DNA of 64,000 nt from Laetiporus sulphureus 93-53 (lineage: Eukaryota; Basidiomycota; Agaricomycetes; Polyporales; Laetiporaceae), in the NCBI RefSeq assembly GCF_001632365.1, contig NW_024468542.1, forward strand, positions 289,051 through 353,050, in the 5' to 3' direction. The translations under genes were made by a program, and so were the position numbers. Below, piece by piece: positions 20-63,754 of the stretch. Position 1 is the first letter of the stretch, and every line of letters begins with the position of its first letter. The notes below the pieces were generated by a model. That model had not been told where the DNA came from and made no database searches. It worked only from the letters and a program-made list of their open reading frames with translations.

Positions 20-1100
20 ATGAGTAACTCCAGCCACGTTGGTGGTTATTCCATAGTGTACATGCGACATTTGCTCGAGGAAAATGGACGTCGCTATGGT
101 AATACGGATCATCTCCACCGGCGGTTCATGGAGGTCGTCGGTAGTCCCAGGAGACCGCCCCCTCGTATAGTGTTACCGAAAAGGAAGGACAAAAGGTTGC
201 TGGTCCAGTCCGAACGGTCGGTGAGTGCGCTGTCATGGACGTCCATCGTGTCTTCCGTGCTTATGAGTGCCAACTCACCATGTATTAGAAAGATAGCAAT
301 GCGATGAAGTCGAACCATGGCGTGCGGCCGTCACTTGCTGTCGAGACGGAGCCTGAAGGAGGCATGCCAAAACCCAGGAGTGAAGAAGATGTTATGGATG
401 GTAAACGCAGGCACAGTCACATGGTAAGTCACTCAGGTACATGAAAGCTCAATGACGTACTATCTTACATTATGCGACCAATGTAGGAGCAGAACACCGC
501 GTATCCAGGGCCTGCAAAGTCCGGTACAGCTGCTGACCCCGAGGTCGGCTTGGATGCCATCGCGAATGGCACATGGACTGATGAAATGGGCGCCTTGCGC
601 GAGCGCCGTCAAGAGGGACGGTTGACTGACATAGAGGTAAGTGGAAACGCGGAGTACAACATCGAAAGTTGCTCGCTCACCCATGAAATCCGCAGGATGA
701 TGAATCAAACTCGAGCGATGCCGAAACTGACTTGTCAGACACGCTGTCGGAGTCACCCATTGAAGAGGGACTTGAAAGCTCGTCCAAGAGAGAGTTTGCT
801 GATGCATTCGCCGAGGACATTGACATGAATGGTCTAGATGATAATGTGCCAAGGAAGAAAATGAGGGCCGAAGCAGCATTTGGTGGTCATGACGAACAAT
901 CGGCCCTTCCGAACTTCGAAGCCAGCAGATTTTCTGGGTGCGTCTGCTGCGTTCTTATCGAGCGAGCGATATGCCTGACCTTTGATATTAGCCACGTTCC
1001 TGTTGCCCGACGCGAGCACGTCATAGGATCTACCTCTACTTCATCGCCGGTGCGATCTGACCTTGAGCTGCCATCGCGAGATGCAAGCCGTACATTGTAG
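20..1100 (+). CDS. Gene 1: unrecognised five-exon acidic protein
   Basis: Proposed exons are 20-220, 289-423, 487-636, 696-937 and 992-1100, giving about 278 aa. The first three junctions are phase 0. All donors are GTGAGT, GTAAGT or GTGCGT; introns 1 and 3 carry an ACTCACC or GCTCACC motif before the acceptor. Intron 4 is 54 nt and open, so retention would add 18 residues. Exon 4 is rich in Asp, Glu and Ser and is followed by a basic patch (PRKKMRAE), compatible with a nuclear protein. No known domain is recognised. The plan (67-codon exon 1, 45-codon exon 2, CTCACC introns) matches the minus-strand families further right. The ATG at 20 is the first in frame, but the window edge could hide an earlier exon. 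Confidence 0.58.
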
Positions 1101-2785
1101 ACGAATTAGATGCGAGATGAACTCATTTCTTCAACTCCCCGAAACAGATGGTGTGCTGTGGGAGGATTATCACTGGCTCGGACTCAAGAAAATGACGTGT
1201 TGAGCGAAACGGACAGTTGCCTGAGTGAGGAGGCGCAGTTTTGAAGGTCAGGAAGTTGACGGATAGCTGGTGACGTTTTGAAAGGCTGGTTGAATAGGAA
1301 CAAGTTGCTCTTCGTGGTTTGTCTTTGAATATTGACTATAGACTGATGCTCACCTTCGAAGTCGACACGGATATGCTCGTTCAGGTATAGCTGCCAAGAC
1401 CTTGTCTTCACAATCTGGTAACACAGGTCTATAGAAAGGATCCCATTACGGAGAATAGCATCAACCGTCATTGAGCACGCAAGATCATCCAGTTGGCAAA
1501 GTCTGTGCCTCCGTGAGCGTCAATACCTGCAGCGAAGTTGTGAGTCACATATTGTGGCGACCAATCAGATGGCTAGATTCCAGTTGCGGCGTTGACGTGG
1601 TTCATCACTCAGCGGCTGTCGTGAATCGCAGGCCGCACGACTTCCGCTCAAGCAAGCAAAAGGTGCTCTGATGAGCTTGTGAAATCATATTTTCATAAAG
1701 AAAACAAATTCATAGCAGAACCCGCTTGAGGCCACCGGGGCCATCATCTTAGCCGTATACTACTACACCGCCTTCGACAGACGGATCTATTCCAAAATCT
1801 ACGACTGCTCGCGCGTGGCTAGTACCAAGTCCCGACGCAAAGTCAGAATTTTATACTCAAAGATAGAATGAGTGAAAGTACCGTCTTAGGCAAGACAATA
1901 GCCGTTGCCCTCTGAGCGGTCAGAAAGACAAGTTCAGAGAACTATCATCCATAGCCTATAGGAAATATATAAGAGACAATAAAGACCTCCCAGAAGGGAC
2001 CATCAGGCGCATTTCATTTTGCTCCAACACACTGTAAATCAACGGAAGACATCACAGACCATCCGACACATTTGCAGCCGAGGACACCCAACGAGGCTAA
2101 TCAGGCAGCAGCACATAGCTTAGTAGTCTATCTTTCGCAGTGTCCAACACGCAGTAGTAGGGCCGTAACGTTTCTGGGTTACTGAGTTTCGAATCGGTTA
2201 TTTCTGAGCTACAGATAACAAGTCTTTCGTAAATGTGCCTTTTATGCCCATAAGCCGTCATTGCAGATGAAGGAATAGTCTATATTGTCGTTGGTATACA
2301 TTCTCACAGGTTGAAAATAGATCCCGCATTATGCCTTCCAACCATCTGCTAAGCATGCTTGCAGAAGTATGACTGTCATTTTTTCTGATGAACAACAACT
2401 ACTTGTCTGAAAAATATACGAACGCCTTGGGATCACCATTATGAAGATGGACAGTAATGCCCGAAATACCTCATGTGTAGGAACGGATAGAGGCTGCAAC
2501 GGTCGTTGTTCTATTCATAATTTCTCAACGATCATTCAGGATAACCCACGGTCGCATCGACTTGCAGAAGGTGAATACAGGGTATTGCAATATTCTACGG
2601 CGTCACATAATACTTAGCATGAACCTTGATTATGAAGGGTAATAGACGACGTACGACATGCAACGTTGACTGTCTCTATCTGACATAAACAGGGGAAATG
2701 TCTAACAGAAAATCCACAGCTACCACCGCATTATAGATCATCGCTGATGTATCTCAGAAAATCAATGGCTGCCGTTCAAAGCGCA
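1101..2785. other. No confident gene; isolated exon-like frame at 1184-1471 (minus)
   Basis: A 95-codon minus-strand frame at 1471-1184 contains a GTGAGC donor-like site after about 40 codons, but no partner exon could be joined. From 1700 to 2785 the sequence is AT-richer, dense in stops in all frames, and shows no feature I can name. Confidence 0.5.
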
Positions 2786-3395
2786 TCGATCAACTATGTC
2801 TAGGCAATCACTTGGAAAGTTGCACGCGGTTTCCGAGTTGGGAATGACTGAGAAAGAGGTCAGCCGATTGAACTTCTTATTGACGTGATGATTTGAAGAC
2901 TTACGCAACGGAGCACAATACGTACGCATGAAACCAGAAGAAGGCTGTTCAATAACAACGTCTACACGCCTTCTGCTCTTGGAGTCCCACATACGCCATG
3001 GTGCGGCAACGAGGGCCTGGTGGACGACCGAGCTATCGCAGTGATCGAGCACCGATCCACAGCCTACGTGCGCTCGACGATGCTGCTAACGGTCACATTC
3101 TACCAATGCGACCACCGTACCGGAAGTAGAAACCATTGATTCCAACGCAATCAACTGAACGTTGCAAGCGGTGTCCAAATTGAGAATAAATGACAAAGAG
3201 GTCAGTTAATTGAAGTTCTCGTTGACGTGTATTGTGCGAAGACTTACGCCAATGTATGCGCCCGAAACCACAGAATCTATCCAATAGCCATGTCTACGTG
3301 CCTTCTGTCTTTGGAGTCTCACATACGCCGTGGGACGGCAACGAGGGCCTCATAGTCGACCGAGCCATTGCAGCGACCGAGCACCAAGATCCCCA
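2786..3395. repeat. Tandem duplication of a ~260 bp segment
   Basis: 2786-3053 and 3140-3395 are diverged direct copies, sharing stretches such as cacatacgccrtggnrcgg and gcaacgagggcct. On the plus strand both keep a similar peptide (HTPWxGNEGL, then DRAIA), suggesting the ancestor was an exon. No complete gene remains. Confidence 0.6.
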
Positions 3396-4660: not shown

Positions 4661-4662
4661 AT

Positions 4663-5177: not shown

Positions 5178-7858
5178 TCATCGGATGCGGCCTGGTACCT
5201 CGCGTGTGACGTAGTGCCAGATGTAGTGCGTCCAGCCTTCGAGCACGCCGGCGCCGGTCATGATATGCAGACAATCGCCTGCGGAATGCTAACAACGAAT
5301 AACACGGTGAGTAATAGCAGAGTAAAGGAAAAGGCAGGACTCACCGCGTCGGGACGGAGAAGTGCCGGTCGGTCTATCGGCAGATAGTGAATATCAGGGA
5401 AAGCAGGCGAGGACAGGGTCTCCTGAATTGCGACGGCCAGTCAACGACAGTTCCTGTACAGATGATGCCCGCACTCACCTCGAATATTCGGTTAAAATCC
5501 TTGATACTTCCCCAATTATACCAGTTCCACCGGAACGACTTCCACTCGGTCCACGGCCTCCTCTCATCATGACAATCCTCATGCCCCGGCAAATACGCCC
5601 TAATCACCACCTGCCGCTCAACCCCACCCCTCCTCCCCAACCCAAACCACCGACCGGACCTCCTCTCCTCCTCCTCCCGATACCCATCCATCATCCCCTG
5701 CACCTCCTCCGCCCACCTCTGCATACTCACCCCAAAGAACCCCAACACACCCGCAATCCCGTCCCCAGGCTGCGCCGGATCCGCAAACCCAGACATGAGC
5801 GTCGTCGTCCAATGGCCCGCCGTGCTGATCACGAGTGTGGAGTATCGCAGGGGCGCGGGCTGCAAAAATATCTCGCGTACGTACTCGCGCGGGGACATGC
5901 TCCAAAACTGCTCGTCGCTGAACAGCGGCTTTGAAGGGAGCCTGAGCGCCTCGCCGTCCGCCTCTGCGCCCGAAGGATAGAGCTCTGCGTAGAGCGCCTC
6001 GAGCTCGGGCCGGTCGAGGAGCAGGTCGACGCGGCGGAAGGTCACGAGCGGCGTCTTTTCGATGTCGAAGCCCGGGGGGAGCGCGAGATGCCGGAGGAGT
6101 GGCGACGTGGGCGAGAGGTAGAGGTTTTGTGGCCATGCGCGGTCGAAGTAGGGGTTCTCGGTGTAGTTGGGCGTCGCGCGGACGTGCGGGAAGAGAACGC
6201 ATGAGAGCGAGAAGAAGTGGTTCTCGGTTACCGAGTCTGGGGAGATATCAATTCAGTAACAGTGTTTGGGAGGTAGAAGTGCCTGAAATTGGGTGACAGC
6301 GCCTCAACCCGCCCTATCAGCCTGCGGCTATCTACATGCGCTTAGCAGTGGAATAGCTGAGCCTGACGTTATAGGTATGGCGAAGTAGACCAGTGCTGAC
6401 GCGCGCTGCGCCTGCCATCACTGCTGCGCGGTCAATAGACACGCCAAATGACGCATTGCGCTATCTGTGAGGCACCCACTAGAGCTGCAGATATGTCTGA
6501 CCGATGCATCGCTGCAGCTCACACCACCACATCGCGCTCTGTTGGCGGGAGGGCGATGGTGATGAGGTCGATAGCCTCAAACACACATCAAAAATAAAGT
6601 CAAAGATATGGCCAAGTAGACCATGGCTGATGCGCGCCGCGCTTGCCATCACTGCTGCGCGGTCAATAGACACGCCACATGATACGTTGCACTATCTGTG
6701 AGGCACCCCCCAGAGCCGCAGACAGGTTTAACCAGTGCATCGCTGCAGCTCAGTTGGCGGGAGGGCGATGGCGACGAGGTCGACGGCCACAAACACATCG
6801 AAAATGATTGTTTGAACGTTAAGGGTATGGCCAAGTAGACCATGGCTGATGTCGCGCCTCAGCCTGCGGCTATCTGCATGCGCTTAGCAGTGGAATAGCC
6901 CAGTCTGACGTTATAGGTATGGCCAAGTAGGCCATGGGTAACGCGCGCTAGGCTTGCCATCGCTGCTGCGGGGTCAATAGACACGCCAAATGACGCGTCG
7001 CGCTATCTGTGAGGCAACGCTGGAGCTGCAGATAGGTCCGACCGATGCATTGCTGCAGCTCAGACCACCACGTCGCGCTCTGTTGGCGGGAGGGCGATGG
7101 TGATGAGGTCGACCACCTCAAACACATCGAAAATGATTATTTGAACAATAGAGGTATGGCGAAGTAGACCAGTGCTGACGCGCGCTGCGCCTGCCATCAC
7201 TGCTGCGCGGTCAATAGACACGCCAAATGACGCATTGCGCTATTTGTGAGGCACCCCTTAGAGCTGCAGACAGGTCTGAACGATGCATTGCTGCAATTCA
7301 GAACATGCCGCGCTCTGTTGGCAGGAGGGCGATGGTGATGAGATCGCCCCCATCAAACACATCGAAAATGATTACTTGGATGCATTACTCACCGCCAATC
7401 AACAGCCAGCCACCCTTCTCGACCATATCCTTGACAAGCGCCTCGCCGTCGAACGGACGGACCTCGCATTCGTCGGGCGGAGTCCACTGCCAGCTATGTG
7501 CGCCGGGGAAGCGACCCCACTGAGCCTCGTTGTCAGCCGCGAGGTGCCACCAGAACTCGCGGTCGCTCGCGCAGCCCTCGAATCCAGCAAAGTCGAGGAT
7601 GTCCTCCTTGCGATGCATGGTCATGTCGGGGTGGTCCGGCAGCGAGAGGTTCTTGGGCGTCCATGCGCCATCGGCGTATGCTTGTGGGGGGCAGGTGCTG
7701 CGGTAGCGCGGCTCGGAGACGTGGATGAGGGAGTCGAGGGCGTGGGAGAGGGGGGAGAGGTAGAGGAAGTAGAGGAGGCCGCCAGCGAGGGCTGCGAGGA
7801 GGAGGGTGCGCGGGACGTGCGTACGGGAGGGCAACCCGCGGAAGATTCCCTTGCTCAT
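5178..7858 (-). CDS. PMR5/Cas1-type GDSL (SGNH-like) acyl-esterase/acyltransferase, membrane-anchored
   Basis: Exons are 7858-7393, 6236-5479, 5422-5345 and 5288-5178, giving about 470 aa. Residues 19-37 form a signal anchor after a basic N-terminus, as in type II Golgi proteins. The catalytic GDS motif (LLIGGDSVTENHF) is created across the first splice junction near residue 156. The C-terminal DxxH motif (GDCLH) lies in exon 4, followed by GAGVLEGW. The middle carries conserved Trp/Tyr-rich segments (KSFRWNWYNWGSIKDFN). This order fits the PC-esterase family containing plant PMR5/TBL and the Cas1p luminal domain, whose known members O-acetylate polysaccharides. A cell-wall or capsule glycan substrate is inference. 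Start: ATG at 7858 opens the anchor. The first intron (7392-6237) is abnormally long and repetitive. Confidence 0.85.
6303..7385. repeat. Tandem repeat array filling intron 1 of the PMR5/Cas1-type gene
   Basis: A unit of roughly 220-240 bp recurs. The anchor ggtatggcnaagtagncca appears near 6375, 6609, 6826, 6917 and 7154, so spacing is about 234, 217, 91 and 237 bp. Each unit also carries ctgctgcgcggtcaatagac and ttggcgggagggcgatgg. The array lies wholly within the intron and adds about 1.1 kb. Confidence 0.85.
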
Positions 7859-10921: not shown

Positions 10922-10959
10922 GCGTTCTATTGTCGCAACTAAGCATAGCGGGCTGGCCA

Positions 10960-11708: not shown

Positions 11709-12717
11709 CTACTCTTCCGTCGCGCTGCCAGAGAGCACGCAGAACCCGAACGGGGTGCTCGATCCGCGCTTCTTCCTATACGAATAGGAGAGGCAGCGTT
11801 GCATGTCTTCCTCCGAGCAGCATGCTATCTCGACCCAGTCGTTTCGGGGCATCTTGCCATCGTCGGCGGCGTCGTTGTGGAGCTCGGCCTTATCACCGAG
11901 GCTTATGTCCGACGAGGGCCCTGAAGAGCTCGCTCCTGAGCCTGAGCCTCCCCTGTAGTCATCCTCAGAGTTCGCAAGGCCGGCGCTCGGTCCTGCGGAC
12001 GACTTGCAATTTCTCAATGCATCAACTCTAACCCTGTAACGCGGCAAATCGATATGCTCACCAGTCGCGAGGCCAAAGATGCGTCCATCCGCCACTTCTT
12101 AAACATCTCCAGAGCCAAGCCCCTTGCCCACTCGTGTTCGAGAACGCTGTCGTTCTCTTCTTGCAAGAGCGATACTGTCGACTCTGCGGCGGAGGCCGTT
12201 GGCGTGCCTTGCTCCGAGGATTGGAATGCGCGGAGGAGGGGGCCTCCAGTCTGTCAACGACAGATGAGGGACAGCAGAATAGGAAGAAGGTCGTCAACTT
12301 TGCTTACCATCCAATCCTCGTTCACCTCATTCCCATTCTCTCCACTGTCGCCCCTCACTTCAAATGCTTCCTCCAGGACTGTCTCCTGGGGCAGTGGCGG
12401 GAGCTGATTCGTGTGTCATGATCAACGACGGTGGATTTATGGAGACATTAATGTTATATAGTGGTGAGTGAACAGGTTTTGACGGGCGCGATGGGAAGCA
12501 ATTGACTCACCGGTTTGTCCCTTCCGCTCGTCAAACTTTGTTCACTTGCAGTGACCGTGACCTTGTCTGCGACACTCAAGGTCGCCTTGGCTGCGACGGC
12601 CTCCATGTACGTTCAGGCCCATTCTGAAGGATTGTGGTCGACTTGATGGGCTGGCAACATCTGCATGACCTTACTTCTATTCGACACGCGAGGCTTTTTG
12701 AAGAATCCAAGAGCCAT
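11709..12717 (-). pseudogene. A1: family A gene with a nonsense codon in exon 1
   Basis: Exons 12717-12511, 12403-12308, 12250-12062 and 12002-11709 have exactly the lengths of intact A3 (207, 96, 189, 294 nt), with phase 0 joins. In exon 1 the codon after EWA is TGA (plus-strand TCA at 12613-12615) where A3 has CGA. The rest is open, including LPPLP in exon 2, GGPLLRAFQSS in exon 3 and CCSEEDMQRCLSYSYRKK in exon 4. CGA to TGA is a CpG-type transition, so either decay or one wrong base explains it. Confidence 0.65.
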
Positions 12718-15507: not shown

Positions 15508-16048
15508 CTACTCTTCCACGGCGCCGCCAGCGAGCACGCAGAAGCCGAAGGGTGTGCTTGACCCATGCTTCTTCCGATACGAGGAGGAGAGACAACGTTG
15601 CATGTCTTCCTCCGAGCAGCATGCTATCTCGACCCAGTCGTTTTGGGGCGTCTTGCCATCATCAGCGGCGTCGTTGGGAGTCCACCCTTGCCACCAAGGC
15701 TCACGTCGGACGAGGGCGGTGAAGAACTCGCACCAGAGCCTGTACTTCCCATGTGGTCTCCCACAGAGGTCGCAAGAGGGGTGCTCGATCCTGCGGACGA
15801 CTTGCGATTTCTCAATGCATCAACTCTAATCCTATAACGCGGCAAATCGGTGTGCTCACCATTTGCGAGGCCAAAGATGCGTCCATCGGCCATTTCTTAA
15901 ACATGTCCAGAGCCAAGCCCCTTCCCCACTCGCATTCGAGAACGCTGTCGTTCTCTTCTTGCAAGAATGATACTGTCGACTCTGCGGCGGAGGCGGTCGG
16001 TGTGCCTTGCTCCGACGATTGGAATGCGCGGAGGAGGGCCCCCACACT
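15508..16048 (-). pseudogene. A2: family A gene, frameshifted in exon 4 and cut by the T-depleted block
   Basis: Exon 3 (16048-15860) and exon 4 (from 15800 down to 15508) match A1 and A3. Exon 4 lacks one base near 15,678 relative to A1, which shifts the frame after SLGGKG; the conserved CCSEEDMQRCLS peptide continues in another frame. Exons 1 and 2 should lie at about 16,100-16,440 but are inside the T-depleted block. Position-by-position similarity to A3 exons 1-2 is still visible there. Confidence 0.65.
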
Positions 16049-21073: not shown

Positions 21074-21893
21074 TCATGATGGGGGATCCATTGTCTGCAC
21101 GGTCTCCGGCAGCAGCGAACAGCTGACCCTAGCAATTTGTGCATTCGTAAACAACATTGCACACGTATGCTTTAGAAAGGATCCGACATTTACCGGTTGG
21201 TCGAGCATCACTGCCCTGATTGGCAGTCTCTGTAGGCTCGAGGTGGTCGTGCTCTTTGGTTCTTCCTTTGTCTTGTCAAGGCCTTCCACCACCAGGAGCG
21301 ACGGAATCGAGCTTGGCCCTGATATCAGCCGGCCTTCGTGTCCTGAGAGGAGCCCTGAAGAAAGATCTCCTTCACACTGCGGCCATGGTGAGCATATACT
21401 GTGTTCACTGATCCTTGAGGTCTGGCTCACTAAGTTGGCCAGGTACACTTCGTGCTCCTGGTCTTCCTGTCTGAAATCGGCTTGTAACGGGCTTTTCAGG
21501 AGCGGTGTGGAGCCCACACGCTGGGACTGTGATATTCGATGGCCGATAGATCAACCATCGACGCGAACAGGGCGCGAATAGAAAAGAAGCGTTGTGATGT
21601 GCCGGTGAGTGCGCAGTCCTTGATGGGTTGCTGGCTGGCTTACGCACCTGTTGGTCTGGTTCTGGCTGTGCACAGGTGTTTTCAGCAGCCCTCGGCTTGC
21701 GGAAAGGCGTTCGTCGACGCTTATAATAGCTCTTTGAAAGCTTAGGGTGTGGCACAATTATCATCACCATGTAAGGAATCTTGCGCCTAACGATTGCGTG
21801 GATTCTCTTGATGAACGACGGCACCACGGTCTTGTGCGCTGTAGTCAGCGACTCCCTTGATAGCTGGGCGATTCCACTATTCGTGCGTACCAT
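21074..21893 (-). CDS. Gene C: family B-like protein, diverged
   Basis: Exons 21893-21648, 21526-21431 and 21376-21074 join in phase 0, giving about 214 aa. Exon 1 contains the family B signature in diverged form: IKR, then a basic stretch, then KIPYMVMIIVPHPKLSK (B1 has KLPYILVIIQPRPELSE). An alternative acceptor would leave exon 2 as EHEVYLANL only, matching the HEV start of B exon 2. Exon 3 opens CEGDL where B has VEGKD and E has IEGEF. Intron 1 is GTGCGTAAGCCAGC and contains TGCGCACTCACC. ATG 21893 adds about 28 residues before the conserved part; a shorter start is possible. Function unknown. Confidence 0.58.
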
Positions 21894-22823: not shown

Positions 22824-23736
22824 CTATGCGTCAACAGCCGCCTGCACGTCTATAATAGCACCGGCCAATATATGGTATCCGAATCGCGTGCCAAAACCAC
22901 CCTTTCGTCGGTACGAATAGGAGAGACAGCGTTGTTTGTCTTCCTTCGCGCAACACATGGTCCTGGTCTCGAGCGGTTCACATATGGGCGCCTTGGAGCC
23001 ATCGTCTGCGTCACTGACGGTATCAACGTTGCAGTGGAGATTCATTTCGGAAACGAATAATGAGGATTCCGCGCTGTGGCCCTCGGTCGTTCTGCGGTCA
23101 TCCGCTGAAACAATAAGGCCCAAACTCTGCACGGAAGATGACTAGAGCCCCTCAACAGTCTCAGCGCCGGCCATCTTGCGCAGGAGATGTATCCTTACCA
23201 TGTGGGAGACCAATGACGCTGTTCTCATCCGTTTGTCGAGCAGTCCCGGCGTCAACGCACTTGCCCATTCATATGCGAGAACAGTCTTGTGCTGTTCAAG
23301 CAAGAGCGATGTGGTTGAACCTGCCGCAGACGCTGTCGGTGTGCCATTTACTGACGATTGAAATGCCCCGAGAAGAGGACCTCCAGTCTTCTAGCAAGTG
23401 ATAAGGAACAGCAGATGCAAGTTCAACAGAGATTTGCTCACTACCCAGTATGCACTCTCTCCATTGTCGAATACTGTACTATCACCCTCCACCTCGATCA
23501 CAACCTCGGGAATCGCCTCTGAGGGCAATGACGGGAGCTGATGGATATGGCAGTCACAAGCGGGGGAACAGATCCATAAGATATCACGATCATATATTGG
23601 TGAGTGCACTGATTATGACGGAAGAATAGATATATGGTTAACTCACCGGCTTGTCCTGCCTTCCCGTCATTTTTTGTGCTCTCACAGAAGCTTTGCCTGC
23701 TTTTGCTTGCTTCTGCTGCTTGTAAAAGCTATCCAT
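22824..23736 (-). CDS. A4: family A protein with short first exon
   Basis: Exons 23736-23647 (30 codons), 23537-23442 (32), 23387-23199 (63) and 23126-22824 (100 plus stop) give 225 aa. All joins are phase 0. Exons 2 and 3 have exactly the A3 lengths; exon 1 is shorter because the upstream frame has a stop and no ATG. It keeps RQDKP at the exon 1 end, LPSLPSEAIPE in exon 2, GAFQSSVNGTPTASAAGS in exon 3 and KEDKQRCLSYSYRRK in exon 4. Intron 1 has GTGAGTTAACC and GTGCACTCACC. This is the more diverged but apparently intact copy. Confidence 0.62.
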
Positions 23737-29343: not shown

Positions 29344-30159
29344 TCAAACCCTCCTGGAATTGTGTCTGCCTCTATACGCGGGGGAGATGACGCGGTTCCT
29401 GTCCCAATTTCTATAACCCGAGATCTCGTGTGGTTCACTTGGGAGCGCCTTGGAGGGATTACCGGCATCGCGATGGGCGTCGCATACATCTGCGAGGATG
29501 AACTCGGACTGGGATGATGAAGGTCCCTCAATGGAGCTTTCCATTGCTTTGTGATCTTCCGTTGAGTTTGCTCCGATAATAGGCGGCAGCCAGGCCAGCC
29601 AACGTGCATCAGGCAACCCTGGAGTCGTTGCACTCTCTGGATCGTGCTGCAGTCTCAACAGCGATGCAGTCGATCCTGCCTCAGACGCTGTTGGTGTATC
29701 GTAGAGCGAGGATTGAAATGCGTTATGGAGAAGAGCTTCTGTCTGCGAAGAAGGGATGAGGGCCCACAAGGGAATAATGATCAAATCATACTCGCATCGT
29801 CCTCGTGCTCTCCGCCATCACCTTCGACCTCAGAGGTTTCTTCTGGGATACTCTCCGTGGGCAGTGGCGGTAGCTGATGAATGTGTCGCCAGGTGTCACA
29901 GTGGCGGATCAACGGCGGGATTGTGATGATACGTTGGTAAGTGCACAGGCCATGACGGCATGCAGGCAGGCAGTTGACTCACCGGCTTTTCCCTCCCGGA
30001 CGCCATGGTTTGTGCATTTGCAGTAGTTTTTCTCGCTACTGCCTGTCTTTGCGCTCTAGAACCTCCCGCAAAACTATGCCCTGGTTGGATGAGGGGTACG
30101 TGTGGCATATTTTTACCTTTGGCTGTGGCGTAAGCCCTCTTACTAGATCCGGGCGTCAT
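29344..30159 (-). pseudogene. A5: diverged family A gene, probably defective
   Basis: Exon 1 (30159-29983, 59 codons) ends MASGREKP like A3, followed by a canonical GTGAGTCAAC intron with TGCACTTACC. Exon 2 opens LPPLPTESIPEE. At the expected end of exon 2 no phase-0 GT donor exists; the nearest, GTATGA, would shift the frame. The exon 3 region (TEALLHNAFQSS, then TASEAGSTASLL) is open, but the EYEWA helix and the C-terminal CCSEED motif of the family are not recognisable. It could still encode a truncated or re-spliced product. Confidence 0.45.
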
Positions 30160-35424: not shown

Positions 35425-36507
35425 TTAGTCAGCCACCCCGCTGCCCTCAGCTTCGACGACGTCCGCGCAGACATCCTTCGCCTCTCCCTCCGAAGCCTCA
35501 TTCAGAATCTCCTCCAGTCGGACCAATGACTCCATTGCCAACTCCATCAGCTCGAAGTCTATCCTATCTAGATGATTGTTGCGAGGCGGCATCGAGGGTG
35601 ACTGGACCAGCGAGGAGGAGGAGAGCTGAGAGGGAATGGCCAAGTTGCGATGGCCGCCCTCGAATGCAACCTCGTGATAGTTGTGCTGCTCGTTGTTCTG
35701 CCTGTTCCTCGCTCTCATTGGAAACTCCGGCGAACTTGACGAGGCGACTTGAGAGGTGGACGCCCACTGAGAATTGGGCCAGCCGGAGTCACAGAGATGT
35801 CCGCCATAGCCGTGCTCCCATTCGGCGGATGGCGTGTCGGTATCGACAGTACCCCACTCCTACAAGTGTAGGTGAGCCATCATTGTCTGGCTCGCACGAC
35901 AACGCCACTCACCGATTCTGACATGATCCCAGATTCTGCCATGCTCATCTCAGCGACCTCCTCCCATTGAATCACGCCCGTCTTGAGCTTGTACTCAAGA
36001 TCAAGCGCATCCGCCATCGTTTGCTCTTTCTTTAGCTGGCGCAAGATCTCGAAAGGCGGCGGGTGGATCTTGACGTCCTTGCCTTCCACCTGGTGCGATG
36101 TTAGTAGCTCGAAAGTCAATGCTCAGACGTGGTCGAGCTCACCATGCAGTAGAAGCTAGGGCCATTGTCCTCGCGATTTATGTCCATAGTGCAGCCCACT
36201 TCGTGCTGTCTGTGCTGCGAGCGGAAGTTCTGCTGTGTCGGCGACAAAATGGACAACCGAGGCGATTCACGGTGAGTACACAGACTGATACGGGCCTGGC
36301 TAGCTCACTCACCAAGCCAACATTCATTTCCGATACGTCCGTATTTGTTTGTGTACTCTCAAGAGTGACGATGTCATACGACAAAGGAGTCACTTGATGG
36401 CCGCAGATAGCCTCCGACAGCTCCGGACGCGGCTGTATTATGACCAAAATATAAGGCAGTTTCTTCTTAAATGCCTTTCCGATCCTTTTGAAGAATGCGA
36501 ACGCCAT
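35425..36507 (-). CDS. B1: family B protein, function unknown
   Basis: Exons 36507-36313 (65 codons), 36205-36143 (21), 36089-35913 (59) and 35859-35425 (144 plus stop), all phase 0, give 289 aa. Exon 1 is basic then hydrophobic: MAFAFFKRIGKAFKKK, then LPYILVIIQPRPELSE, suggesting peripheral membrane binding or a beta strand after an amphipathic helix. Exon 2 ends GPSFYCM. Exon 3 has VEGKDVKIHPPPFEILRQL and a helix of Lys and Glu. Exon 4 has WEHGYGGHLCDSGWPNSQW and ends in a long acidic helix (DFELMELAMESLVRLEEIL). Conserved wording continues upstream of the ATG (VFCLS, PIDTST), but no ATG lies there. Introns 1 and 3 contain CTCACC. Confidence 0.74.
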
Positions 36508-37418: not shown

Positions 37419-38816
37419 TCAAACTCTCACCTCCTGGGTCAATGGCTTGTCCGCGCTTACTGCCTGGTCTGTTGCTTCAGCAGGTCCGTTGTAGAATGCC
37501 CTCACGGTGGCTTCATGACGCTCATTTTCTGACAGTCTCTTCCATCTTTGAACCGCATGTCGGTGCAGGTGAAGATCCGAGTGAAGATATGCCAGTATTG
37601 GGGACGGCTTGTATTTGCAGGTTGGGAAGACGCTCGCGCGAGTAGTCTCTGAGCCTTTCGTTTGCCCCTCGGCCTTCCTGCCGGCGATCTGTCTCGCGTA
37701 GCTGGCACTTGCACGGACCCGAGAGAACTCAGACCAGTCGATGTCTGCGGCCGATTGGAGCAACCATACGGCTGTATGATGAGCAATGCCGGTGGACTCG
37801 TCGTTATCTGCATGTGTCGCCTTCTTCACGTCTCGAATGAGCATTCTACATGCATTCGATCGCTCTGTCTGATCAGGCACGGAATATGCCGACTATACAT
37901 TGCATAAATAATACCCATTGCGGTGAGTGGGCAATCTGGCAGCTGATCTTTCACTGTGTGCTCACATTCATATTGGCTAAACCTCTCTGTCCAGGAGACT
38001 TCCTCAGGTTGGTAGCTGTCGGGTCAGCGAGAATCTCTGTCACGGAACGAGGTGGAGGATTTCGTTGCATCTGCCTGCGGTCAGTCCGACGTAGACTATT
38101 AATTCTGCATATTCACTTACGACACGTTCGTTCCCATGCAGAGCATCCCCTCTCACCTGCCCAATCGATCTTGGCAATTCGCCTCCACGAATGAGGCACC
38201 TGTTTGCGGCGGGGTGGTGGTGGTGAGCTGTGGTCCTAGATGACGATGCATCCCATCTGCCTGTGATGGCTCCCAATCGAGGAATCTTGACGACACATGG
38301 TGAGCACAGACAACTTTACAACTGAGAGTTGGTTTGCTGACTTACCTGATGACCATTCTTGGCTGTAACGTTGTGTGTGCTCTTGTAGATTTTCTCGGAC
38401 ATGATCTCTCGAGTGGTAGCATTGGAAGGGTGGCCATCGCTTTGCATACTGCGCATCCGGTCTGACATTCCTCCGATCCATTCGGCCTTATAAAGACTGA
38501 GAGCTGCCCAAGGGTGAGATGTTGTGCGATTATATGTAGAGCGAAGGCGCGGAGGCCCGTTGTACGCCACATGTTGGAGTTTAGACAAAAGTCTTATGGA
38601 ATCAGCGTCAGTTCGAAAATATTGGGACGTGTTCGTCCCTCTCCCCGCAGCTTGGGAATCGTGGAGAGGCCTCACGAGAGCATTGGCGGGGCGAGATTGC
38701 GGGGTCATACCGAGCGCCACGATCGAGGGTGTGGACAAAGGCATAAATGTGCCACTGCTACTCTGTTGTCGGTGAGCAAGTGGAGCTTTCGTATATGGAC
38801 GTTGAATGTTTGACAT
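37419..38816 (-). CDS. D1: family D protein, function unknown
   Basis: Exons 38816-38346 (157 codons), 38285-38121 (55), 38070-37966 (35) and 37892-37419 (157 plus stop), all phase 0, give 404 aa. Exon 1 is Ser/Pro/Arg-rich and probably disordered, with HPWAAL near residue 113. Exon 2 opens IPRLGAITG, then has a His run. Exon 3 has PPRSVTEIL. Exon 4 carries the most conserved part: AVWLLQSAADIDWSEFSRVR and YKPSPILAYLHSDLHLHR, then RWKRLSENERHEATVRAF. The last segment resembles the final helix of an HMG box (W..LS..ER....), but the rest of that fold is not evident. Intron 1 is GTAAGTCAGCAAACC with TGTGCTCACC and an AAG acceptor. Confidence 0.73.
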
Positions 38817-40215: not shown

Positions 40216-40221
40216 CATCTC

Positions 40222-40233
40222 ATTGGCCGCCAC
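40222..40233 (+). promoter_or_regulatory. ATTGGCCGCCAC element (unit 2)
   Basis: Followed by a TATA-like gaatatatatc at about 40,338 and an ATG at 40,390 opening CSICNAGADILSRHQ, then a GTAAGT donor. Confidence 0.45.
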
Positions 40234-40550: not shown

Positions 40551-40799
40551 TTACTTGTCTCTCGTCCCTTCTTGCTCGCCCCAGCGACTGCTCAAACCCG
40601 CTGGACGGATCGTCTGATCGAGAGCAATCGCGGTCCAGGAGTCCTCATTTTCCATTCTTTCGATGCAAGATGACAAGCCGTATGCATTGTACGAGCACGC
40701 AGTCACATCACGGCATGTGTAGCTTCCGTCACTGCTAGATATTGGCGCATCCGGACACTGGTAGAGGTGGAGGTGTGAGGTGCCTACATTAGGGAGCAA
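40551..40799 (-). other. Conserved minus-strand segment J2 (LYQCPxAP)
   Basis: Partner of J1 at 34.2 kb, open for 82 codons; Cys spacing suggests a former metal-binding or disulphide segment. Unsupported beyond the pairwise match. Confidence 0.25.
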
Positions 40800-41982
40800 A
40801 AAGTCGGCTCGGTTCTATGGTTCGTAAATTTATCTAGTCGCCTTTGACGCTCGTCATGACACCATATGAACCTGCGTCAGCCAGCTCTTCACGTCGCACG
40901 AAAGCGTCGCACGAGTTGGCGCCAACCTCCTGCAGACGTGGCGAGTTAGCATTTTCTTAAGCTCCGATCTATATCGTTCTCACCTGGACGGCACCACACA
41001 GCAGCGGATTGCACAAGGCGATCCATCCGTGATTACATGTCTGGCTTGCATGGTTTCCAAGATAACTGCACGTTAAGCTATCGTCACGTCCAGAGCTGAC
41101 AATACGTGTGCCGGCTGCATCCCTGTCGACGTTATCGGTCATTAGTGACTCATTGTGTGTGCAGAACTCCCGTCTGCCCGTGCGTGCAACCATTCTTTCC
41201 CGCATCCGTCCTGCTCGTTGTCCCTGACATGTCTCAGTAGGGCTTCTCAATCTGACTTCGAGTGCTATGCATGAGAACAAGACTATTCTTGGTCACTGCT
41301 TTTCTTGCGGCAGACGGCTTTCGACGTCTGTTGAGCATGAAGAAGTCGACCGGTGTGTTCACAACGACACACTTACCTGCTGTTCGAGTGCGACCGCCGT
41401 CAGTCCACTCTCTTGTGGGGATCACATCATTGCCTGCAGCTGTTGCGAAATCCTGGCTCGATCGATTGTTGGCGCCATCGCGAAGTCAGAGCTCGAACTG
41501 GCCGTAGTGGCATGCTTTAGGAACTGTCGGATGTGGCAGGCCAGAACGCATGAAAGTAAGTCAGCGCTTTCTCACACGATCATAGGCGACAAACTCATGG
41601 GACTCGATATTCCATATTGCATGACGCAGAGTGGGTTGAGCGGGCAGGTTGGAAAAGGGGGCGTAGTTTGAGGGAGACAGTGACAGATGGGGCCCGGGCG
41701 CTTGTGTCAATTCCCCCCCTTTGGCCGCTTTGTGTTCTTTGCTTACGGAACCCGGCCATCACGCGATACGGTCTTGTTGTTCGAAGAATCTAAAATCAAT
41801 AAAACAGTATGCTTACATTTCCGAGCGAGACGTGTAACTGAACACCTTCTCCCAGACAGGCTCGCTGCTTAGTACGTCATTCCTCAACTCCATGCACCCA
41901 TCCCCTTATATCCTGCTCATCTCGACTCTATGCCAGTCAACCTATCATTGACTATCCAACATGTTCTGCCCACCTCCGTGCA
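40800..41982. other. Spacer of unit 2
   Basis: Contains the plus-strand QGDPSVITCLACMVS relic and an HCFSCGRRLS peptide near 41,285, matching diverged sequence at 34.4-34.9 kb. No complete gene. Confidence 0.35.
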
Positions 41983-43075
41983 TTAGTTGGCCACCCCATT
42001 GCCCTCCGCTCCGAGGACGTCTGCATAGATATCCTTCATCTCTCCCTCCGATGCCTCATCCAGGAGCTCCTGCAATCGCACCAGCGACTCCATTGCCAGC
42101 TCCAGCAGCTCGAAGTCTATTCTGTCCGGTTCATTGTTGCGAGACAGCATTGTGGGGACCTGGACCAGCGAGGACGAGGAGAGCTGGGATGCAATGGCCA
42201 AGTTGCGGCGACCGCCCTCGAGTACATCCTCGTGACAGTCATGTTGCTCGCTGTTACGCCCGTTCATCGTCCTCATTGGAAACTCCGATGAACTCGATGA
42301 GGCGACTCGAGAGGTGGATTCCCACTGAGAATTGGGCCAGCCGGAGTCACAAAGATATCCGCCATAGCCGTGCTCCCATTCGGCGGATGGCGTATCAGTA
42401 TCGATCGTACCCCACTCCTACAAGTGTAGGTGAGCCATCATTCTCTAGCTCGAATGACGACGCCACTGACCGAGTCCGATATGATACCAGGTTCCGCCTC
42501 GCTCATCTCATCTATGTCCTCCTGCTGAACCATGCCAGTTCTCATCTTGTAGTCGAGGATGACCGCGTCGACCAGTGTCTGTTCCTTCTCCAGCTGACGC
42601 AGGATTTCAAAAGGCGGAAGATGGATCTTGACGTCCTCGCCGCCGATCTGGTAGTGATGTCAGTACTTTGAAACACGATCTTCAGACGTCATCGAGCTCA
42701 CCATGCAGTAGAAGCTGGGTCCACTGCGGTCGTGACGCATGTTCCGAGTGTAGTCCATTTCATGCTGTCGGCGTTGCGAGCATGTGCAGACATTCCGATG
42801 TGGCGGCGACAAAATGGACGATCGAGGCAATTTACGGTGAGCACACAGATCGATACGGACGTGGCGGTTAGCTTACTCACTGATCGCACGTACTCGTCTG
42901 ATTCATCCGTATTAATTTGCGTGTTCTCAAGAGTGACGATGTCGTAGTGGAAAGGAGTGGCTTGATGGCCGCAGATCGCTTCCGACAGCTCCGGATGTGG
43001 CTGTACTATAACCAAGATATAAGGTAATTTCTTCTTGAATGCCTTTTTGATTTTTTTGAGGAACCCAAACACCAT
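41983..43075 (-). CDS. B2: family B protein, tandem paralog of B1
   Basis: Exons 43075-42881, 42764-42702, 42647-42471 and 42417-41983 have exactly the B1 lengths and phases; 289 aa. Exon 1 reads MVFGFLKKIKKAFKKK, then LPYILVIVQPHPELSE. Exon 2 ends SGPSFYCM. Exon 3 opens IGGEDVKIHLPPFEILRQL. Exon 4 ends with DFELLELAMESLVRLQELL and an acidic tail. Intron 3 uses GTCAGT where B1 has GTGAGT. The middle of exon 1 (YDIVTLE) and the exon 4 Trp/Gly segment are the most conserved parts. Conservation of exon lengths and open frames across a 6.6 kb duplication argues that both copies are under selection. Confidence 0.74.
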
Positions 43076-44218: not shown

Positions 44219-45656
44219 TCAAACTCTCGTCTCGTGGGCCGATAGCTGCTTCGTGCTTATAGCCTGTTTTGTTGCTTCAACAGATCCATTGCTGAATGCC
44301 TTCATGGTCGCTTCGTGACGCTCATCTACCGACATTGTCTTCCATCTTTGTCCCGCCTGTTGGTGCAGATGGAGATCCGAGTGAAGGTACGTCAACGTGC
44401 GGGACGGCTTGTATTTGCACGCTGGGATGACAGTCTGGAAGCCTTTCATTTGGTCTCCAGTCTTCCTGCTGGCAATCTGTCTCGCTTCATTGGTGTTTGC
44501 ACGGACCCGAGAGAACTCGGCCCAGTCTACGTCTGTGGCCGATTGAAGCAACCATATGGCTGTACGGTTAGCAGTGTCGGTCAGCTCATCGCCATCCGCA
44601 GATGCCTGCTTCCTGTTGTTTTGAACGAGCAGTCCAGGTGTGTTCGGTCGCTGTATCCAATCAGATTTGGAATACACCATCTACATGATGCCCATCACGG
44701 TGAGTAGATCATATGGGAGCTGATCGTTCACTGTGTGCTCACAATCGTGGAGGCTGAACCTCTCTGTCCAGAAGACGTCCTCCAGTTGGTAAGTCTCGGG
44801 TCAGGCAGAATGTCGGTCATGGGACGAGGTGGCATCCGTTTACGTCTAGACGACGTTGCATTCAGCGCGGAATTTTGTACAGGCCGAGCCTTATGACCAC
44901 CACGAATGTTTCGTTGCATCTGCCTGCGGTCAGTTTGACATGGACTATGCATTCCGTACATTGACTTACCATGCGTCCATTTCCATCCAGAGCATTCCGT
45001 CCAACCGTTCTGATCGACCTTGGCAGTTTGTCTCCGGAAGGAAGACTCTTCTTCGTGCCACGGCGGTGGTGAGCGGCAGCCCGAGATGGCACTGCACCCC
45101 GTATGCCGCTGACGGCTCCCAATTGAGGAACCTTCGTGACACATAGTGAGCGCAGGAAACAGTACAACCGAGACTTGGATTGCTGACTTACTTGACGACC
45201 AATCTTGTCTGTACTTTTTACTACGCTTGCATAGGTTCTTTCGGGCAAGACCTCTCGAGTGGTAACATTTGAAGAGCGGCCGCCATCTTGCATACCGCGT
45301 ATAAGACCTGCCATTTCTGCGACTCCTTCGGCTTTGTTGGGACTGAGAGTTGCCAAACGGTGAGGTGTCATAGGACCATGTATAGAGCGCAGCCGTGGAG
45401 GGTGCGCCCTACGTTTGAGTGTGGACAATGGCGTAATGGATCCAGTGTCAACGCGAGGATGTTGGGGCCTGTCGATCTTCTTCGCCGCATTTCTCATGCT
45501 GGGCAAGGGCCTCTTGGGAGTATTGGCTGGTCGATTATGCGCGGCCGCACTGACCACCACGACCGAGGGTCGGGACAAAGGCATGGATGTGCCACTGCTC
45601 CTCTGTCCTCGGTGAGCCGGTGGAACGTTTTTATGTGGGCGTTGAAGGTTTGACAT
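44219..45656 (-). CDS. D2: family D protein, tandem paralog of D1
   Basis: Exons 45656-45192 (155 codons), 45131-44970 (54), 44919-44743 (59) and 44680-44219 (153 plus stop), phase 0, give 421 aa. Exon 3 is longer than in D1 by a Lys/Arg-rich insert before MPPRPMTDILPDP. Exon 4 keeps AIWLLQSATDVDWAEFSRVR, LTYLHSDLHLHQQ and RWKTMSVDERHEATMKAFSN. Exon 2 opens VPQLGAVSG. The N-terminal Ser/Pro/Arg-rich exon shares RLRSIH and TTREVLPER-like segments with D1. No known family. Confidence 0.73.
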
Positions 45657-60970: not shown

Positions 60971-61722
60971 TCAGGAAAACGGCTTCGCGATTGCTCCAGC
61001 GCGGGGCACGCCTGGCACGTCTGCCCGCACGCCGATCATAGCAATGTCTTTGCACTGAATGCCCATTAGCAGACAAGGCGACAACGAGGTGTGAATCGAA
61101 CTCACATTAGCAGCCGTCGAGGTTGCCTCTTGAGACCGCCTTTCTAACTCGGTGGCTTCTCCCAGCGATTGTTCATTGACATGAACATGGGCCATAGTCT
61201 GCGGCTTCGAACTCGCAAATAGCTTGGTCTCTTGCCCCGAGGAAGTCGCATCCTCGATGCCATGTTTGTTGGGCAATTCCATCTGCACGTACGTTAATAT
61301 ATTGTCCGCTCATGTATGTTGATAAAGAACTCACCATGCCTCTAAGAAGCCTTTTGCTAAACTCTGCATTAATGTGCTGCTCTCTCTCCTTCAATAAGTC
61401 CAGAAGGCCTACTTGCAGCTCGGGGGATTGTCGCCTTTGCAGTGGCCGGTCGATCACACCAGGACCGGCTTCATCGTGAAATGTCTTGATGACCACGGTA
61501 AGCACACAGGATAATACGGACGTGTCATGGCTGGTGAACTTACTTGTTTACCCTCATGGGCCGTATATCTCTGTGTGTTTGCATAGCCAGTGTTGCTGTA
61601 ATCGTATACAGTCGTGAACCGAAGACGGGGTGGAGCGATCGGTTGCTTGTCGTGCGACAGATGCTCTTTACGTTCAATGGCGGTAGTGTTGTCGATACCG
61701 AGTCCTTTGAGGGAGTATCCAT
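60971..61722 (-). CDS. Gene F: unrecognised four-exon protein
   Basis: Exon 1 61722-61552 (57 codons, if the GTAAAC donor is used), exon 2 61484-61335 (50), exon 3 61282-61106 (59) and exon 4 61054-60971 (27 plus stop); about 193 aa, phase 0. A better-looking GTAAGT eight bases downstream would break the frame, so the first junction is uncertain. Exon 2 holds a Leu/Glu/Arg helix (GLLDLLKEREQHINAEFSKR). Exon 3 is polar and rich in Glu and Ser. Intron 1 contains TGTGTGCTTACCG, the motif shared with families A-E; intron and exon order resemble D with shorter exons. No known domain. Confidence 0.52.
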
Positions 61723-62218: not shown

Positions 62219-62984
62219 CTATGCTGTCTCTCGGCTGTTCTCTGATCCGGAGACCTTGTCCTCGATATCCTGCAGGCAATGAGACATTTTGTACAACTTC
62301 AAGCGTTCGATATCACTAACCATGGTACGAATCCTTTTCGTGGGCCTGAGACGTACGGGGCCTTGCTCCGACCATTTTCCATGGCGCATCGTCTCCGGTT
62401 GCGAGGTCGTCCAAAGGGAGTCATCACCAGCTCTATTCATGAAGGCTTGTGCGTCCTCCTGCTTCAGGACCACGACTTTCCCGTCCATATCTCGGTATCC
62501 CCACTTGCCATGTAGGATACTATCATATGACTGTCGGGCAGGATTCGGCTGGGGCATCATCATCAAGATGGGATGCAGTCGTAGTTCGCCATGTTCATCA
62601 TTGGCGGTTTGCTCGCCATCCCCGTCAACTGATTCGGCCCATTTCCAATATTGTTCCCCGGCTTGCAAGGACTTGTCTTCGGCAAGCGTGATCCAAGATG
62701 AGCAGGTGCGGTGTGTCCAACCGCCGAAGTCCTGATCCATTCGACGGTGAGCGCACAGAATGACGCGGACATTGAATGCTGACCTGATTAACGGGAACGC
62801 CGTCTATGTTCGTGTGATTTTGTGTATTCATAAAGGCTTGTGTGTCGGGACTCTGTTGATCATCGACCTCCGGATCCCCGTCGTCGCCCCAGTCGATCCA
62901 TCGACTGAATGATGGCATAGGCGCGTCTCCCTCATAATCCACTGACAAGGTGCTCAACGTGCTCTCCATTCGAGGAGTGGCCAT
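62219..62984 (-). CDS. Gene G: unrecognised three-exon acidic protein
   Basis: Exons 62984-62784 (67 codons), 62731-62321 (137) and 62269-62219 (16 plus stop), phase 0, give 220 aa. Exon 1 is acidic with FSRWIDWGDDGDPEVDD. A QAFMN pentapeptide occurs in both exon 1 and exon 2 (DTQAFMNTQN and DAQAFMNRAG), suggesting an internal duplication. Exon 2 is rich in Trp, Asp and Glu (GEQYWKWAESVDGDGE) and ends with a basic stretch (RLRPTKRIRTM). Intron 1 starts GTCAGC and contains GTGCGCTCACC, the shared motif. Exon 1 has the same length (67 codons) as in gene 1. No known family or signal peptide. Confidence 0.62.
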
Positions 62985-63754
62985 AGCGAACTTCAAGGCC
63001 TGATCGACTAGATGACGAGTGGCAACGCGACCGAGGTGAACAACGTGAGCAACAGACAGATGTCACGCCCGGGCCTACTGTCTAGCGTGTCGCAGAAGGC
63101 AAGCGAAGATGATCGACAAGCAGACGTCGAATGCGTGGCTTTTATGCTTGTGGTGAGTGGGCAAGTGGAACGAGTCAAATCGGACATGTTGATGGCCACT
63201 AACGCGTCTGTGGCGGCCATCATGCTCGCTTAGGGATACATCAAATTTGGAGTCTTGGATTGAGAAAAGCTAGCGAAATGTATATATATTGTGAGTGCCT
63301 TAAAAACTATGTGACCGAGACGATGTAGTAGACAAAATCTGTTCAGATGTCTCGCGAACATATTGAAAGGCCCGCTCTTCCTTCCACCCTTAAACAGCCG
63401 CTCGCAAACGGTTGATTATCCTTTCATGGCGGCACACATTCTCCCCCCCCTCGTTGTCGTCGTCCAGCATCATCTCCGAAAGTGGTGGCAACTCAGTGGC
63501 TGAGCCCACAAGTCCGCCCAACAAGGCCACTTCGCGTTCATGCGCTCCTTCCAGTTCATCCAGTCGATAGCCAAGGTGGCACTATGGTGCTCATTATCGG
63601 TTTCCCAGGAGATGCCCTTTCCGTTTCAGACCGTGCCAGCTACACGAAAATGGCCGCACAGCGAGCACGGACTTCAATACACGATCTCGTAGCGATCCTT
63701 CTGCTTCGTTCTGACATGGTTTGACAGCTTGTCTCGCTGGCTGAGATTTACCTT
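62985..63754. other. G upstream region, no gene
   Basis: A plus-strand frame (63,012-63,233) opens opposite the G promoter but has no partner exon. A C homopolymer lies near 63,445. Confidence 0.5.

What the first reader, a model, noticed from the sequence alone, without database searches (positions are those of the whole stretch)
20..63000. A superfamily of diverged genes recognisable by its introns rather than its exons
Gene 1 and families A, B, C, D, E, F and G have largely unalignable exons, yet share phase-0 joins, similar exon counts, and a first intron of similar wording: GTRAGTNAGCNNACC at the 5' end and CTGTGTGCTCACCG or ACTCACC before the acceptor. Examples: 42,880 (B2), 38,345 (D1), 25,331 (E1), 20,093 (A3), 62,783 (G). 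Exon 1 of B and C still match (K-PY---I-P-P-LS), and exon 3 of B, C and E opens xEG/xGG. Introns conserved better than exons suggest a common ancestor plus fast, possibly diversifying, change of the protein. Introns of this kind may also be constrained for regulated splicing. I do not recognise any described family with this plan.
Basis: partly seen in the sequence, partly recalled or inferred. Interest (0 to 1): 0.87.

Follow-up and report, generated by a model that had tools for sequence, protein, structure and literature searches.

The report
Shared exon-intron hairpin in orphan genes
In a wood-decay fungus, ten families of fast-changing genes with no detectable protein similarity between them start with the same kind of intron, which is complementary to the end of exon 1 and can fold with it into a hairpin at the splicing branch point, a possible shared control switch.

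Summary
The window lies in an array of small, mostly phase-0 orphan genes; protein matches point to Laetiporus sulphureus 93-53. All five first introns named exist. A first-intron profile finds 57 sites in 304 kb and none in the control loci; gene 1 is not among them. With each family left out in turn, it still finds members of all ten protein-unlinked families (33 of 50 genes).

New finding: the intron motif is the 3' arm of a helix of about 20 bp. Its 5' arm is the end of exon 1, the 5' splice site lies in the loop, and the helix abuts the putative branch-point A. RNAalifold finds it unaided. 15 of 21 pairs show two-sided changes. Own arms pair better than those of paralogs in 38 of 44 genes. 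Few other introns score as high; eight loci not used in training have it.

Most likely it gates splicing of intron 1, but there is no RNA evidence; an antisense-RNA or DNA role is not excluded. Median dN/dS is 0.41, so diversifying selection is not supported.

The parts
12465..12548 (-). hairpin, family A: 5' arm 12528-12548 in exon 1, 3' arm 12465-12485 in intron 1, donor 12510
   Evidence: 15 of 21 WC pairs; CM 62.0 bits
   Evidence: 15 WC + 1 GU of 21; CM 71.0 bits; MFE z only -1.70
21606..21647 (-). family C first intron, donor to putative branch point; intron wording only, no helix found
   Evidence: profile E=4.5; helix score 18 of 42, below the shuffled mean of 20
23601..23684 (-). hairpin, A/F-type gene: 5' arm 23664-23684, 3' arm 23601-23621, donor 23646
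   Evidence: 16 of 21 WC pairs; CM 63.9 bits
25289..25369 (-). hairpin, family E (E1): 5' arm 25349-25369, 3' arm 25289-25309, donor 25331
   Evidence: 15 of 21 WC pairs; CM 66.0 bits; MFE z -2.99
29938..30020 (-). hairpin, family F: 5' arm 30000-30020, 3' arm 29938-29958, donor 29982
   Evidence: 15 WC + 1 GU of 21; CM 65.8 bits; MFE z only -1.58
36273..36359 (-). hairpin, family B (B1): 5' arm 36339-36359, 3' arm 36273-36293, donor 36312
   Evidence: 17 of 21 WC pairs; CM 68.5 bits; MFE z -5.30
35425..36507 (-). B1 gene model: exons 36313-36507, 36143-36232, 35913-36089, and a last exon from 35859 down to about 35425 (the finder breaks it at 35473, which is doubtful; the frame stays open to 35425), phase-0 joins
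   Evidence: home-made gene finder and open frame; no transcript evidence
38301..38383 (-). hairpin, family D (D1): 5' arm 38363-38383, 3' arm 38301-38321, donor 38345
   Evidence: 17 WC + 1 GU of 21; CM 80.2 bits; MFE z -4.45
42838..42927 (-). hairpin, family B (B2): 5' arm 42907-42927, 3' arm 42838-42858, donor 42880
   Evidence: 15 WC + 2 GU of 21; CM 66.8 bits; MFE z -2.31
41983..43075 (-). B2 gene: exon 1 42881-43075 (65 codons, read by eye), an exon 2 whose start is uncertain and which ends at 42702, then 42471-42647 and 41983-42417; the annotated protein P0001 has the same start and C-terminal exons but another join at intron 1
45147..45229 (-). hairpin, family D: 5' arm 45209-45229, 3' arm 45147-45167, donor 45191
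   Evidence: 15 WC + 2 GU of 21; CM 66.8 bits
47423..47510 (-). hairpin, family D copy, donor 47467; ungapped pairing is weak (11 WC of 21), arms probably with an internal loop
   Evidence: dropped from pair counts; CM 60.1 bits
50625..50712 (-). hairpin, family D copy, donor 50669; asymmetric internal loop, weak in the ungapped register (12 WC of 21)
   Evidence: RNAfold; (dropped from pair counts); CM 52.3 bits
61499..61581 (-). hairpin, a further family (relatives begin MDTPSK): 5' arm 61561-61581, 3' arm 61499-61519, donor 61543
   Evidence: 15 WC + 1 GU of 21; CM 77.6 bits; MFE z -4.32
62748..62830 (-). hairpin, family G: 5' arm 62810-62830, 3' arm 62748-62768, donor 62783
   Evidence: 14 WC + 1 GU of 21; CM 67.7 bits; MFE z only -1.41

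Best explanation
The families are one superfamily of orphan genes held together by a cis element at the exon 1/intron 1 boundary. Shown by computation: about 20 nt near the end of exon 1 are complementary, in one ungapped register, to the intron-1 stretch that abuts the putative branch-point A; the 5' splice site lies in the 35-48 nt loop; the two arms co-vary gene by gene. Inferred: in the pre-mRNA this helix masks the branch site while leaving the 5' splice site open to U1, so intron 1 is spliced poorly unless a helicase or a binding protein opens or reads the helix. One trans factor could then switch on splicing of the whole array, and selection on the helix keeps intron 1 and the exon-1 tail recognisable while the rest of the protein changes.
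For: Helix predicted without being imposed: 15 pairs, 12 with two-sided changes. Imposed on 29 non-redundant sites (21 pairs): 79.3% of cells paired against 66.0+-1.0 in shuffles, covariation 0.394 against 0.179+-0.014 (0 of 500 reach it), slid controls 24-44%. Best-helix score: median 32 of 42 in 49 family first introns (80% at 30 or more), 23 in 108 other introns of the same genes (3%), 23 in 178 introns of other genes (1%). Own arms 15.5 WC pairs of 21, same-family introns 13.6, other families 11.5; own better in 38 of 44 and 46 of 46. Along within-family trees 24 of 43 two-sided changes go from WC to WC. At arm index 4, a third codon base where C/T is synonymous (frame checked in 40 of 41 arms), exon and intron co-vary (Fisher p 0.021, relatedness ignored). 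All 8 C33/C34 loci found by intron pattern alone and not used in training score 52-76 bits. A far member on C13 keeps a helix with a different sequence (27 bits), and its annotated protein uses the predicted junction. A stem at the branch point should hinder the spliceosome: a yeast study modelled that stems within 20 nt of it cannot pair in the A complex (PMC12350175, passages).
Against: No RNA data: neither splicing nor retention has been seen. The branch-point A itself pairs in only 20 of 53 sites. The wobble pattern does not favour sense RNA: A.C mismatches 152, G.U 39 of 1113 cells; one-sided changes WC-A.C 78, WC-G.U 32; the sense strand folds more stably than the antisense in only 9 of 53, though composition explains part of this. 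Index 10 keeps an A.C mismatch in 31 of 53. The count of further pair types, 33, does not exceed shuffles (33.2). Two of the 8 untrained loci are not significant one by one (p 0.084, 0.126), and one of 5 off-cluster pattern hits without a CM match reaches p 0.042. Three of 8 window hairpins fold with z between -1.4 and -1.7. Four of 57 sites were dropped from pair counts for weak ungapped pairing, and family C has no helix. The annotated proteins of two B genes do not use the intron-1 junction.
Confidence: 0.5

Rival explanations
1. The helix serves RNA silencing rather than splicing control: the imperfect duplex of 20-odd bp is cut into a small RNA, or the slowly spliced intron stalls the spliceosome and draws RNAi. 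The intron arm would then be a guide against exon 1 of its own gene and its paralogs.
For: Duplex of small-RNA size with a mostly kept central mismatch (the 21-nt length of the scan was my choice, and pairing continues weakly to index 22); the intron arm changes much less than the exon arm (38 against 130 one-sided changes); arms of other families still pair 11.5 of 21 on average; spliceosome-coupled RNAi on poorly spliced introns is reported for a basidiomycete (Dumesic et al. 2013, as described in PMC5851062, passages).
Against: No small-RNA data; the anchoring at the branch point is not needed for a small-RNA precursor; the A.C excess is not expected for a sense hairpin of this kind either.
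Confidence: 0.2
2. The structure acts on the other strand or as DNA: an antisense transcript or single-stranded DNA forms the hairpin, or template switching between the arms of a quasi-palindrome copies changes from one arm to the other and gives covariation with little selection.
For: A.C (U.G on the antisense strand) is much commoner than G.U; the sense strand is the more stable one in only 9 of 53.
Against: In composition-only shuffles the sense strand is also the more stable one in only 24%; some columns show more G.U than A.C (index 4: 7 against 3; index 12: 9 against 2); the one register at the branch point and the kept mismatches do not fit free correction towards a perfect palindrome.
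Confidence: 0.17
3. Nothing special: the shared wording is the general 5' splice site and branch-site consensus of this genome, and the complementarity follows from GTRAG and CTYAC being complementary.
For: GTRAGT and CTYAC occur in other introns too.
Against: No profile match at E<0.01 and no CM match at E<=1 in the control loci; few other introns reach the helix score; the helix involves exon 1, not the 5' splice site; donor base +3 and branch-site pyrimidine fit as the complement would predict in only 26 of 44 scored sites.
Confidence: 0.02

Closest known systems
Zipper stems and other intron structures of Saccharomyces cerevisiae, including introns such as RPS14B (PMC12350175, passages)
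   [quoted passage not shown] Here one arm is exonic, the helix abuts the branch-point A, and it recurs in dozens of genes of ten protein-unlinked families.
wtf meiotic driver genes of Schizosaccharomyces (PMC9562144, passages)
   Same: Multi-exon gene family in which intron 1 holds a control element.
   Different: The wtf element is a transcription-factor site (FLEX) and promoter in intron 1 (passages). FLEX is not enriched here (1 one-mismatch match, 0.72 expected). Protein similarity to wtf was not tested and no drive is known.
Spliceosome-coupled nuclear RNAi (SCANR) of Cryptococcus (described in PMC5851062, passages)
   Same: Would use poorly spliced introns as a signal in a basidiomycete.
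   Different: Acts on transposon-like transcripts with poorly spliced introns; no hairpin is described in the passages seen.
Introner-like elements (recalled, no call)
   Same: Many introns of similar sequence in one genome.
   Different: Those spread into unrelated genes and positions. Here the intron sits at one place of one gene plan, and 28 of 33 pattern matches lie on two contigs.

Membership tests
one superfamily defined by the exon1-intron1 helix | helix of about 20 bp in one register against the branch-point A | tested here: met
   58 CM hits at E<3e-6 in 304 kb, 13 of them in the window (the model was built from 29 of these sites); 53 clean sites; gene 1 and family C fail
one superfamily defined by the exon1-intron1 helix | detectable protein homology between families | tested here: not met
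   10 groups unlinked at BLASTP E<1e-4; hhalign of B-like against G-like alignment E=0.92; the other family pairs were not compared by profile
[quoted passage not shown]
   one arm in exon 1, the other abuts the branch-point A; definition from passages
wtf meiotic drivers | FLEX motif in intron 1 | tested here: not met
   1 match with one mismatch in 64 kb, 0.72 expected by chance, and it lies in the exon arm of B1
wtf meiotic drivers | poison and antidote transcripts, spore killing | not testable with these tools
   no RNA data, no crosses
introner-like elements | similar introns in unrelated genes across the genome | tested here: not met
   28 of 33 pattern matches on C33/C34; of the 5 others one has a CM match and the common gene plan; the patterns cover only GTRAGT donors
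Rfam families | match at gathering score | tested here: not met
   0 matches in the window; at E<=1 only one snoRNA model, outside the hairpins, in the stretch 38200-43000
Pfam protein families | match at the curated cut-off | tested here: not met
   none of 12 orphan proteins scanned, one of them a gene-1 relative; the neighbouring 7TM gene is DUF6534
SCANR targets | inefficient splicing and intron-derived siRNA | not testable with these tools
   no RNA data

The most novel reading that the evidence does not exclude
A branch-point lock: a gene-specific, co-evolving exon-intron helix that marks a hypervariable orphan gene array as one regulon. A single factor reads or opens the helix and so decides, gene by gene or all together, whether intron 1 is removed. 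The helix is the part of these genes that evolution has kept recognisable across families, so families can be assigned by RNA structure where protein comparison fails.
Probability: 0.35. Interest if true: 0.92.

Novelty: new variant of a known kind. Interest (0 to 1): 0.78.

Why it matters
Structures that control splicing are known mostly from single genes (recalled). Here one covarying helix recurs at the same place in about 60 genes of ten families with no detectable protein similarity, in one register against the branch point. It offers a clean, testable system for branch-point masking in a mushroom-forming fungus, a way to trace homology where protein sequence has lost it, and an entry to what a large orphan array does. 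It also suggests that slow intron evolution in fast gene families can have a structural cause.

Tried and rejected
Diversifying selection: not supported. Gene 1 as a member: no helix, no profile match. A switch between 5' splice site:branch site pairing and exon:branch site pairing: donor base +3 and branch pyrimidine fit in only 26 of 44 scored sites. Protein identity: Pfam, PADLOC and PDB sequences gave nothing usable. Own-genome protein searches with an E and a G-like protein found relatives on C33 and C34; below E=0.05 there was nothing on other contigs. AlphaFold on two B proteins gave pLDDT 32.6, so no fold search was made. Early gene-finder runs were unsatisfactory and were replaced. 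Sense against antisense was left open because the A.C minus G.U difference follows from the base make-up of the two arms. Papers: three searches for a described equivalent (2, 0 and 2 papers listed) and two for orphan or lineage-specific families in this group (1 and 2) showed none in the listings; this is not proof that none is in print.

Weak points: gene models are home-made; covariation counts pool related paralogs; the 21-nt arm length was set by me (Watson-Crick pairs per index 0-23 in 53 sites run from 16 to 53); the CM was trained on 29 sites that it then finds again, so only the 8 loci are untrained, and several of them look like paralogs of training sites. The leave-family-out test found only 1 of 7 A/F genes at E<0.01. 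In the own-versus-paralog test one of 44 was a tie.
Full report
Setting. The window is contig C33, bases 289,051-353,050, of a 38.6 Mb genome. A B-family protein search returned P0001, which agrees with the B2 gene read from the window (MVFGFLKKIKKAFKKKLPYIL...) except at the intron-1 join, and P0002, which agrees with a copy in the flank; both are named Laetiporus sulphureus 93-53. A protein of contig C13 has a 100% match in the same strain on a contig of the same length, 690,557. I take the genome to be that strain. The window was read together with 130 kb of C33 flank, 50 kb of C34 and 60 kb of C1-C3 as controls; about 8 kb of the controls and 8 kb of the flank read N.

Genes. A home-made gene finder (earlier versions) shows an array of small multi-exon genes over at least C33:209-403 kb and parts of C34. 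In 50 family genes 168 of 220 predicted introns are phase 0, against 124 of 268 in 37 other genes. BLASTP at E<1e-4 splits the 50 genes into 10 groups of 9, 9, 7, 7, 6, 4, 3, 2, 2 and 1. Relations are visible inside groups, such as the B-like N-terminus xFLKRxxxAxKKKLPYILxIIQPHPELSEA (A2) and the G-like exons (A3), but A2 and A3 do not match each other (E=0.92). None of twelve orphan proteins reaches a Pfam cut-off. Protein searches of the genome with an E and a G-like protein find relatives on C33 and C34.

First introns. The five coordinates in the finding are correct. A profile from 18 first introns, iterated three times, matches 57 sites at E<0.01, 13 of them in the window and none in the controls. 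With each family left out of training, at least one member of every left-out family is still found at E<0.01, 33 of 50 genes in all; the A/F family is weakest with 1 of 7. Two patterns searched over the genome match 33 places, 28 on C33/C34. So the wording is shared across families and is not the general intron consensus of the genome.

The helix. Weak profile matches on the opposite strand about 20 nt upstream of many of these introns led to the main result. The last part of exon 1 resembles the reverse complement of the 3' half of the intron motif. In 53 sites (57 profile sites plus family C, less five dropped: four with weak ungapped pairing and C itself) a 21-nt exon arm pairs without gaps with the 21 nt of intron that end on the A of YTYAC, the putative branch point; the loop of 35-48 nt holds the 5' splice site. 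The 21-nt length was set by me. Pairing is strong from index 1 to 20, the branch-point A (index 0) pairs in 20 of 53, index 10 in 20 of 53, index 21 in 17 and index 22 in 36. RNAalifold on 29 non-redundant sites predicts this helix unaided, with 15 pairs. Counted as given, 79.3% of cells pair (shuffles 66.0+-1.0), 15 of 21 pairs have two-sided changes (shuffles 11.8+-1.2, reached in 4 of 500), covariation is 0.394 (shuffles 0.179+-0.014, reached in none), and sliding the partner by 1-3 columns gives 24-44%. The number of further pair types, 33, does not exceed shuffles (33.2).

Controls. The same best-helix score is 32 of 42 (median) for 49 family first introns that coincide with predicted introns, 23 for 108 other introns of those genes and 23 for 178 introns of other genes; scores of 30 or more are reached by 80%, 3% and 1%. 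Own arms form 15.5 Watson-Crick pairs on average, 13.6 with introns of the same family and 11.5 with those of other families; own is better in 38 of 44 genes (one tie) and 46 of 46. The arm lies in one reading frame in 40 of 41 arms that could be placed in a predicted coding sequence. Index 4 is then a third codon base, mostly AGC/AGT or AAC/AAT, and still co-varies with the intron (Fisher p 0.021, relatedness ignored), which a protein-level cause would not give. Index 1 co-varies more strongly (p 3e-5) but its changes are not all synonymous. Eight C33/C34 loci that were found by the intron pattern alone and not used in training all match the covariance model (52-76 bits) in the same register; two of them are not significant one by one (p 0.084, 0.126). 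Of five pattern matches elsewhere one, on C13, has a helix with a different sequence (27 bits, p 0.018); another reaches p 0.042 without a model match. The C13 site lies in intron 1 of a predicted gene with five exons joined in phase 0, and its annotated protein LAESUDRAFT_724412 uses exactly this junction. The 58 strong model hits in 304 kb include the 29 training sites.

Rates. Within families median dN/dS is 0.41 over 69 pairs with dS<1.2; the intron-1 core evolves at 0.37 of the synonymous rate and is closer than introns 2/3 in 63 of 75 pairs, a set pre-filtered on small intron-1 distance. Along within-family trees the exon arm has 130 one-sided changes and the intron arm 38, and 24 of 43 two-sided changes keep a Watson-Crick pair. 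The intron arm is therefore the steadier partner.

What it does. The most economical reading is a structure in the pre-mRNA that masks the branch site and leaves the 5' splice site in an open loop. A stem at the branch point should block U2 binding: a yeast study modelled that stems closer than 20 nt to it cannot pair in the A complex (PMC12350175, passages). Intron 1 would then need help to be removed, which allows one factor to govern the array. This step is inference. Two things argue for caution. First, the wobble pattern: A.C mismatches (152) outnumber G.U (39) among 1113 cells, and the sense strand folds more stably than the antisense in only 9 of 53, partly through composition (24% in shuffles). 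Some columns show the sense pattern (index 4: G.U 7, A.C 3; index 12: 9, 2). Second, the two annotated B proteins do not use the intron-1 junction: P0002 reads through it and P0001 joins elsewhere. In B2 the position of the acceptor predicted in its flank copy (CGGTAG) reads CGATCG. This may mean mis-annotation, decay or real retention.

Known kinds. No Rfam family matches. Yeast zipper stems differ in place and constraint. wtf drivers share the idea of a control element in intron 1 (PMC9562144, passages), but their FLEX motif is not enriched here. Spliceosome-coupled RNAi (PMC5851062, passages) is a possible consequence. I saw no described equivalent in the listings of the searches made.

Verdict. 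The reason for the constraint is most likely a co-evolving exon-intron helix, which no catalogue searched here describes.

Noticed in passing
window 5178-7858 (-): A gene with a GGWLLIG...DSVTENHFF coding signature (recalled as PC-esterase-like, not searched) is split by about 1.1 kb that holds about four diverged direct copies of a unit of roughly 230 bp; Tandem Repeats Finder does not report them.
   Followed up: partly
window 15858-17900: A low-complexity block with a 412-codon minus-strand open frame interrupts a copy of family A; no first intron of the family was found there.
   Followed up: partly
   Followed up: partly
C13:365456-366834 (L045): A distant member of the same plan (LAESUDRAFT_724412) with its own stem sequence lies on a contig outside the array; the protein search found no relative beyond this strain.
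   Followed up: partly
helix index 10 across families: The centre of the helix keeps an A.C mismatch in 31 of 53 sites although the exon base there is often the third base of a CAA/CAG codon (CAA 20, CAG 7 of 41), so a G that would pair is available.
   Followed up: partly
window 42758-42880: Gene B2 lacks the acceptor predicted for intron 1 in its flank copy (CGATCG instead of CGGTAG); the annotated protein joins elsewhere.
   Followed up: partly
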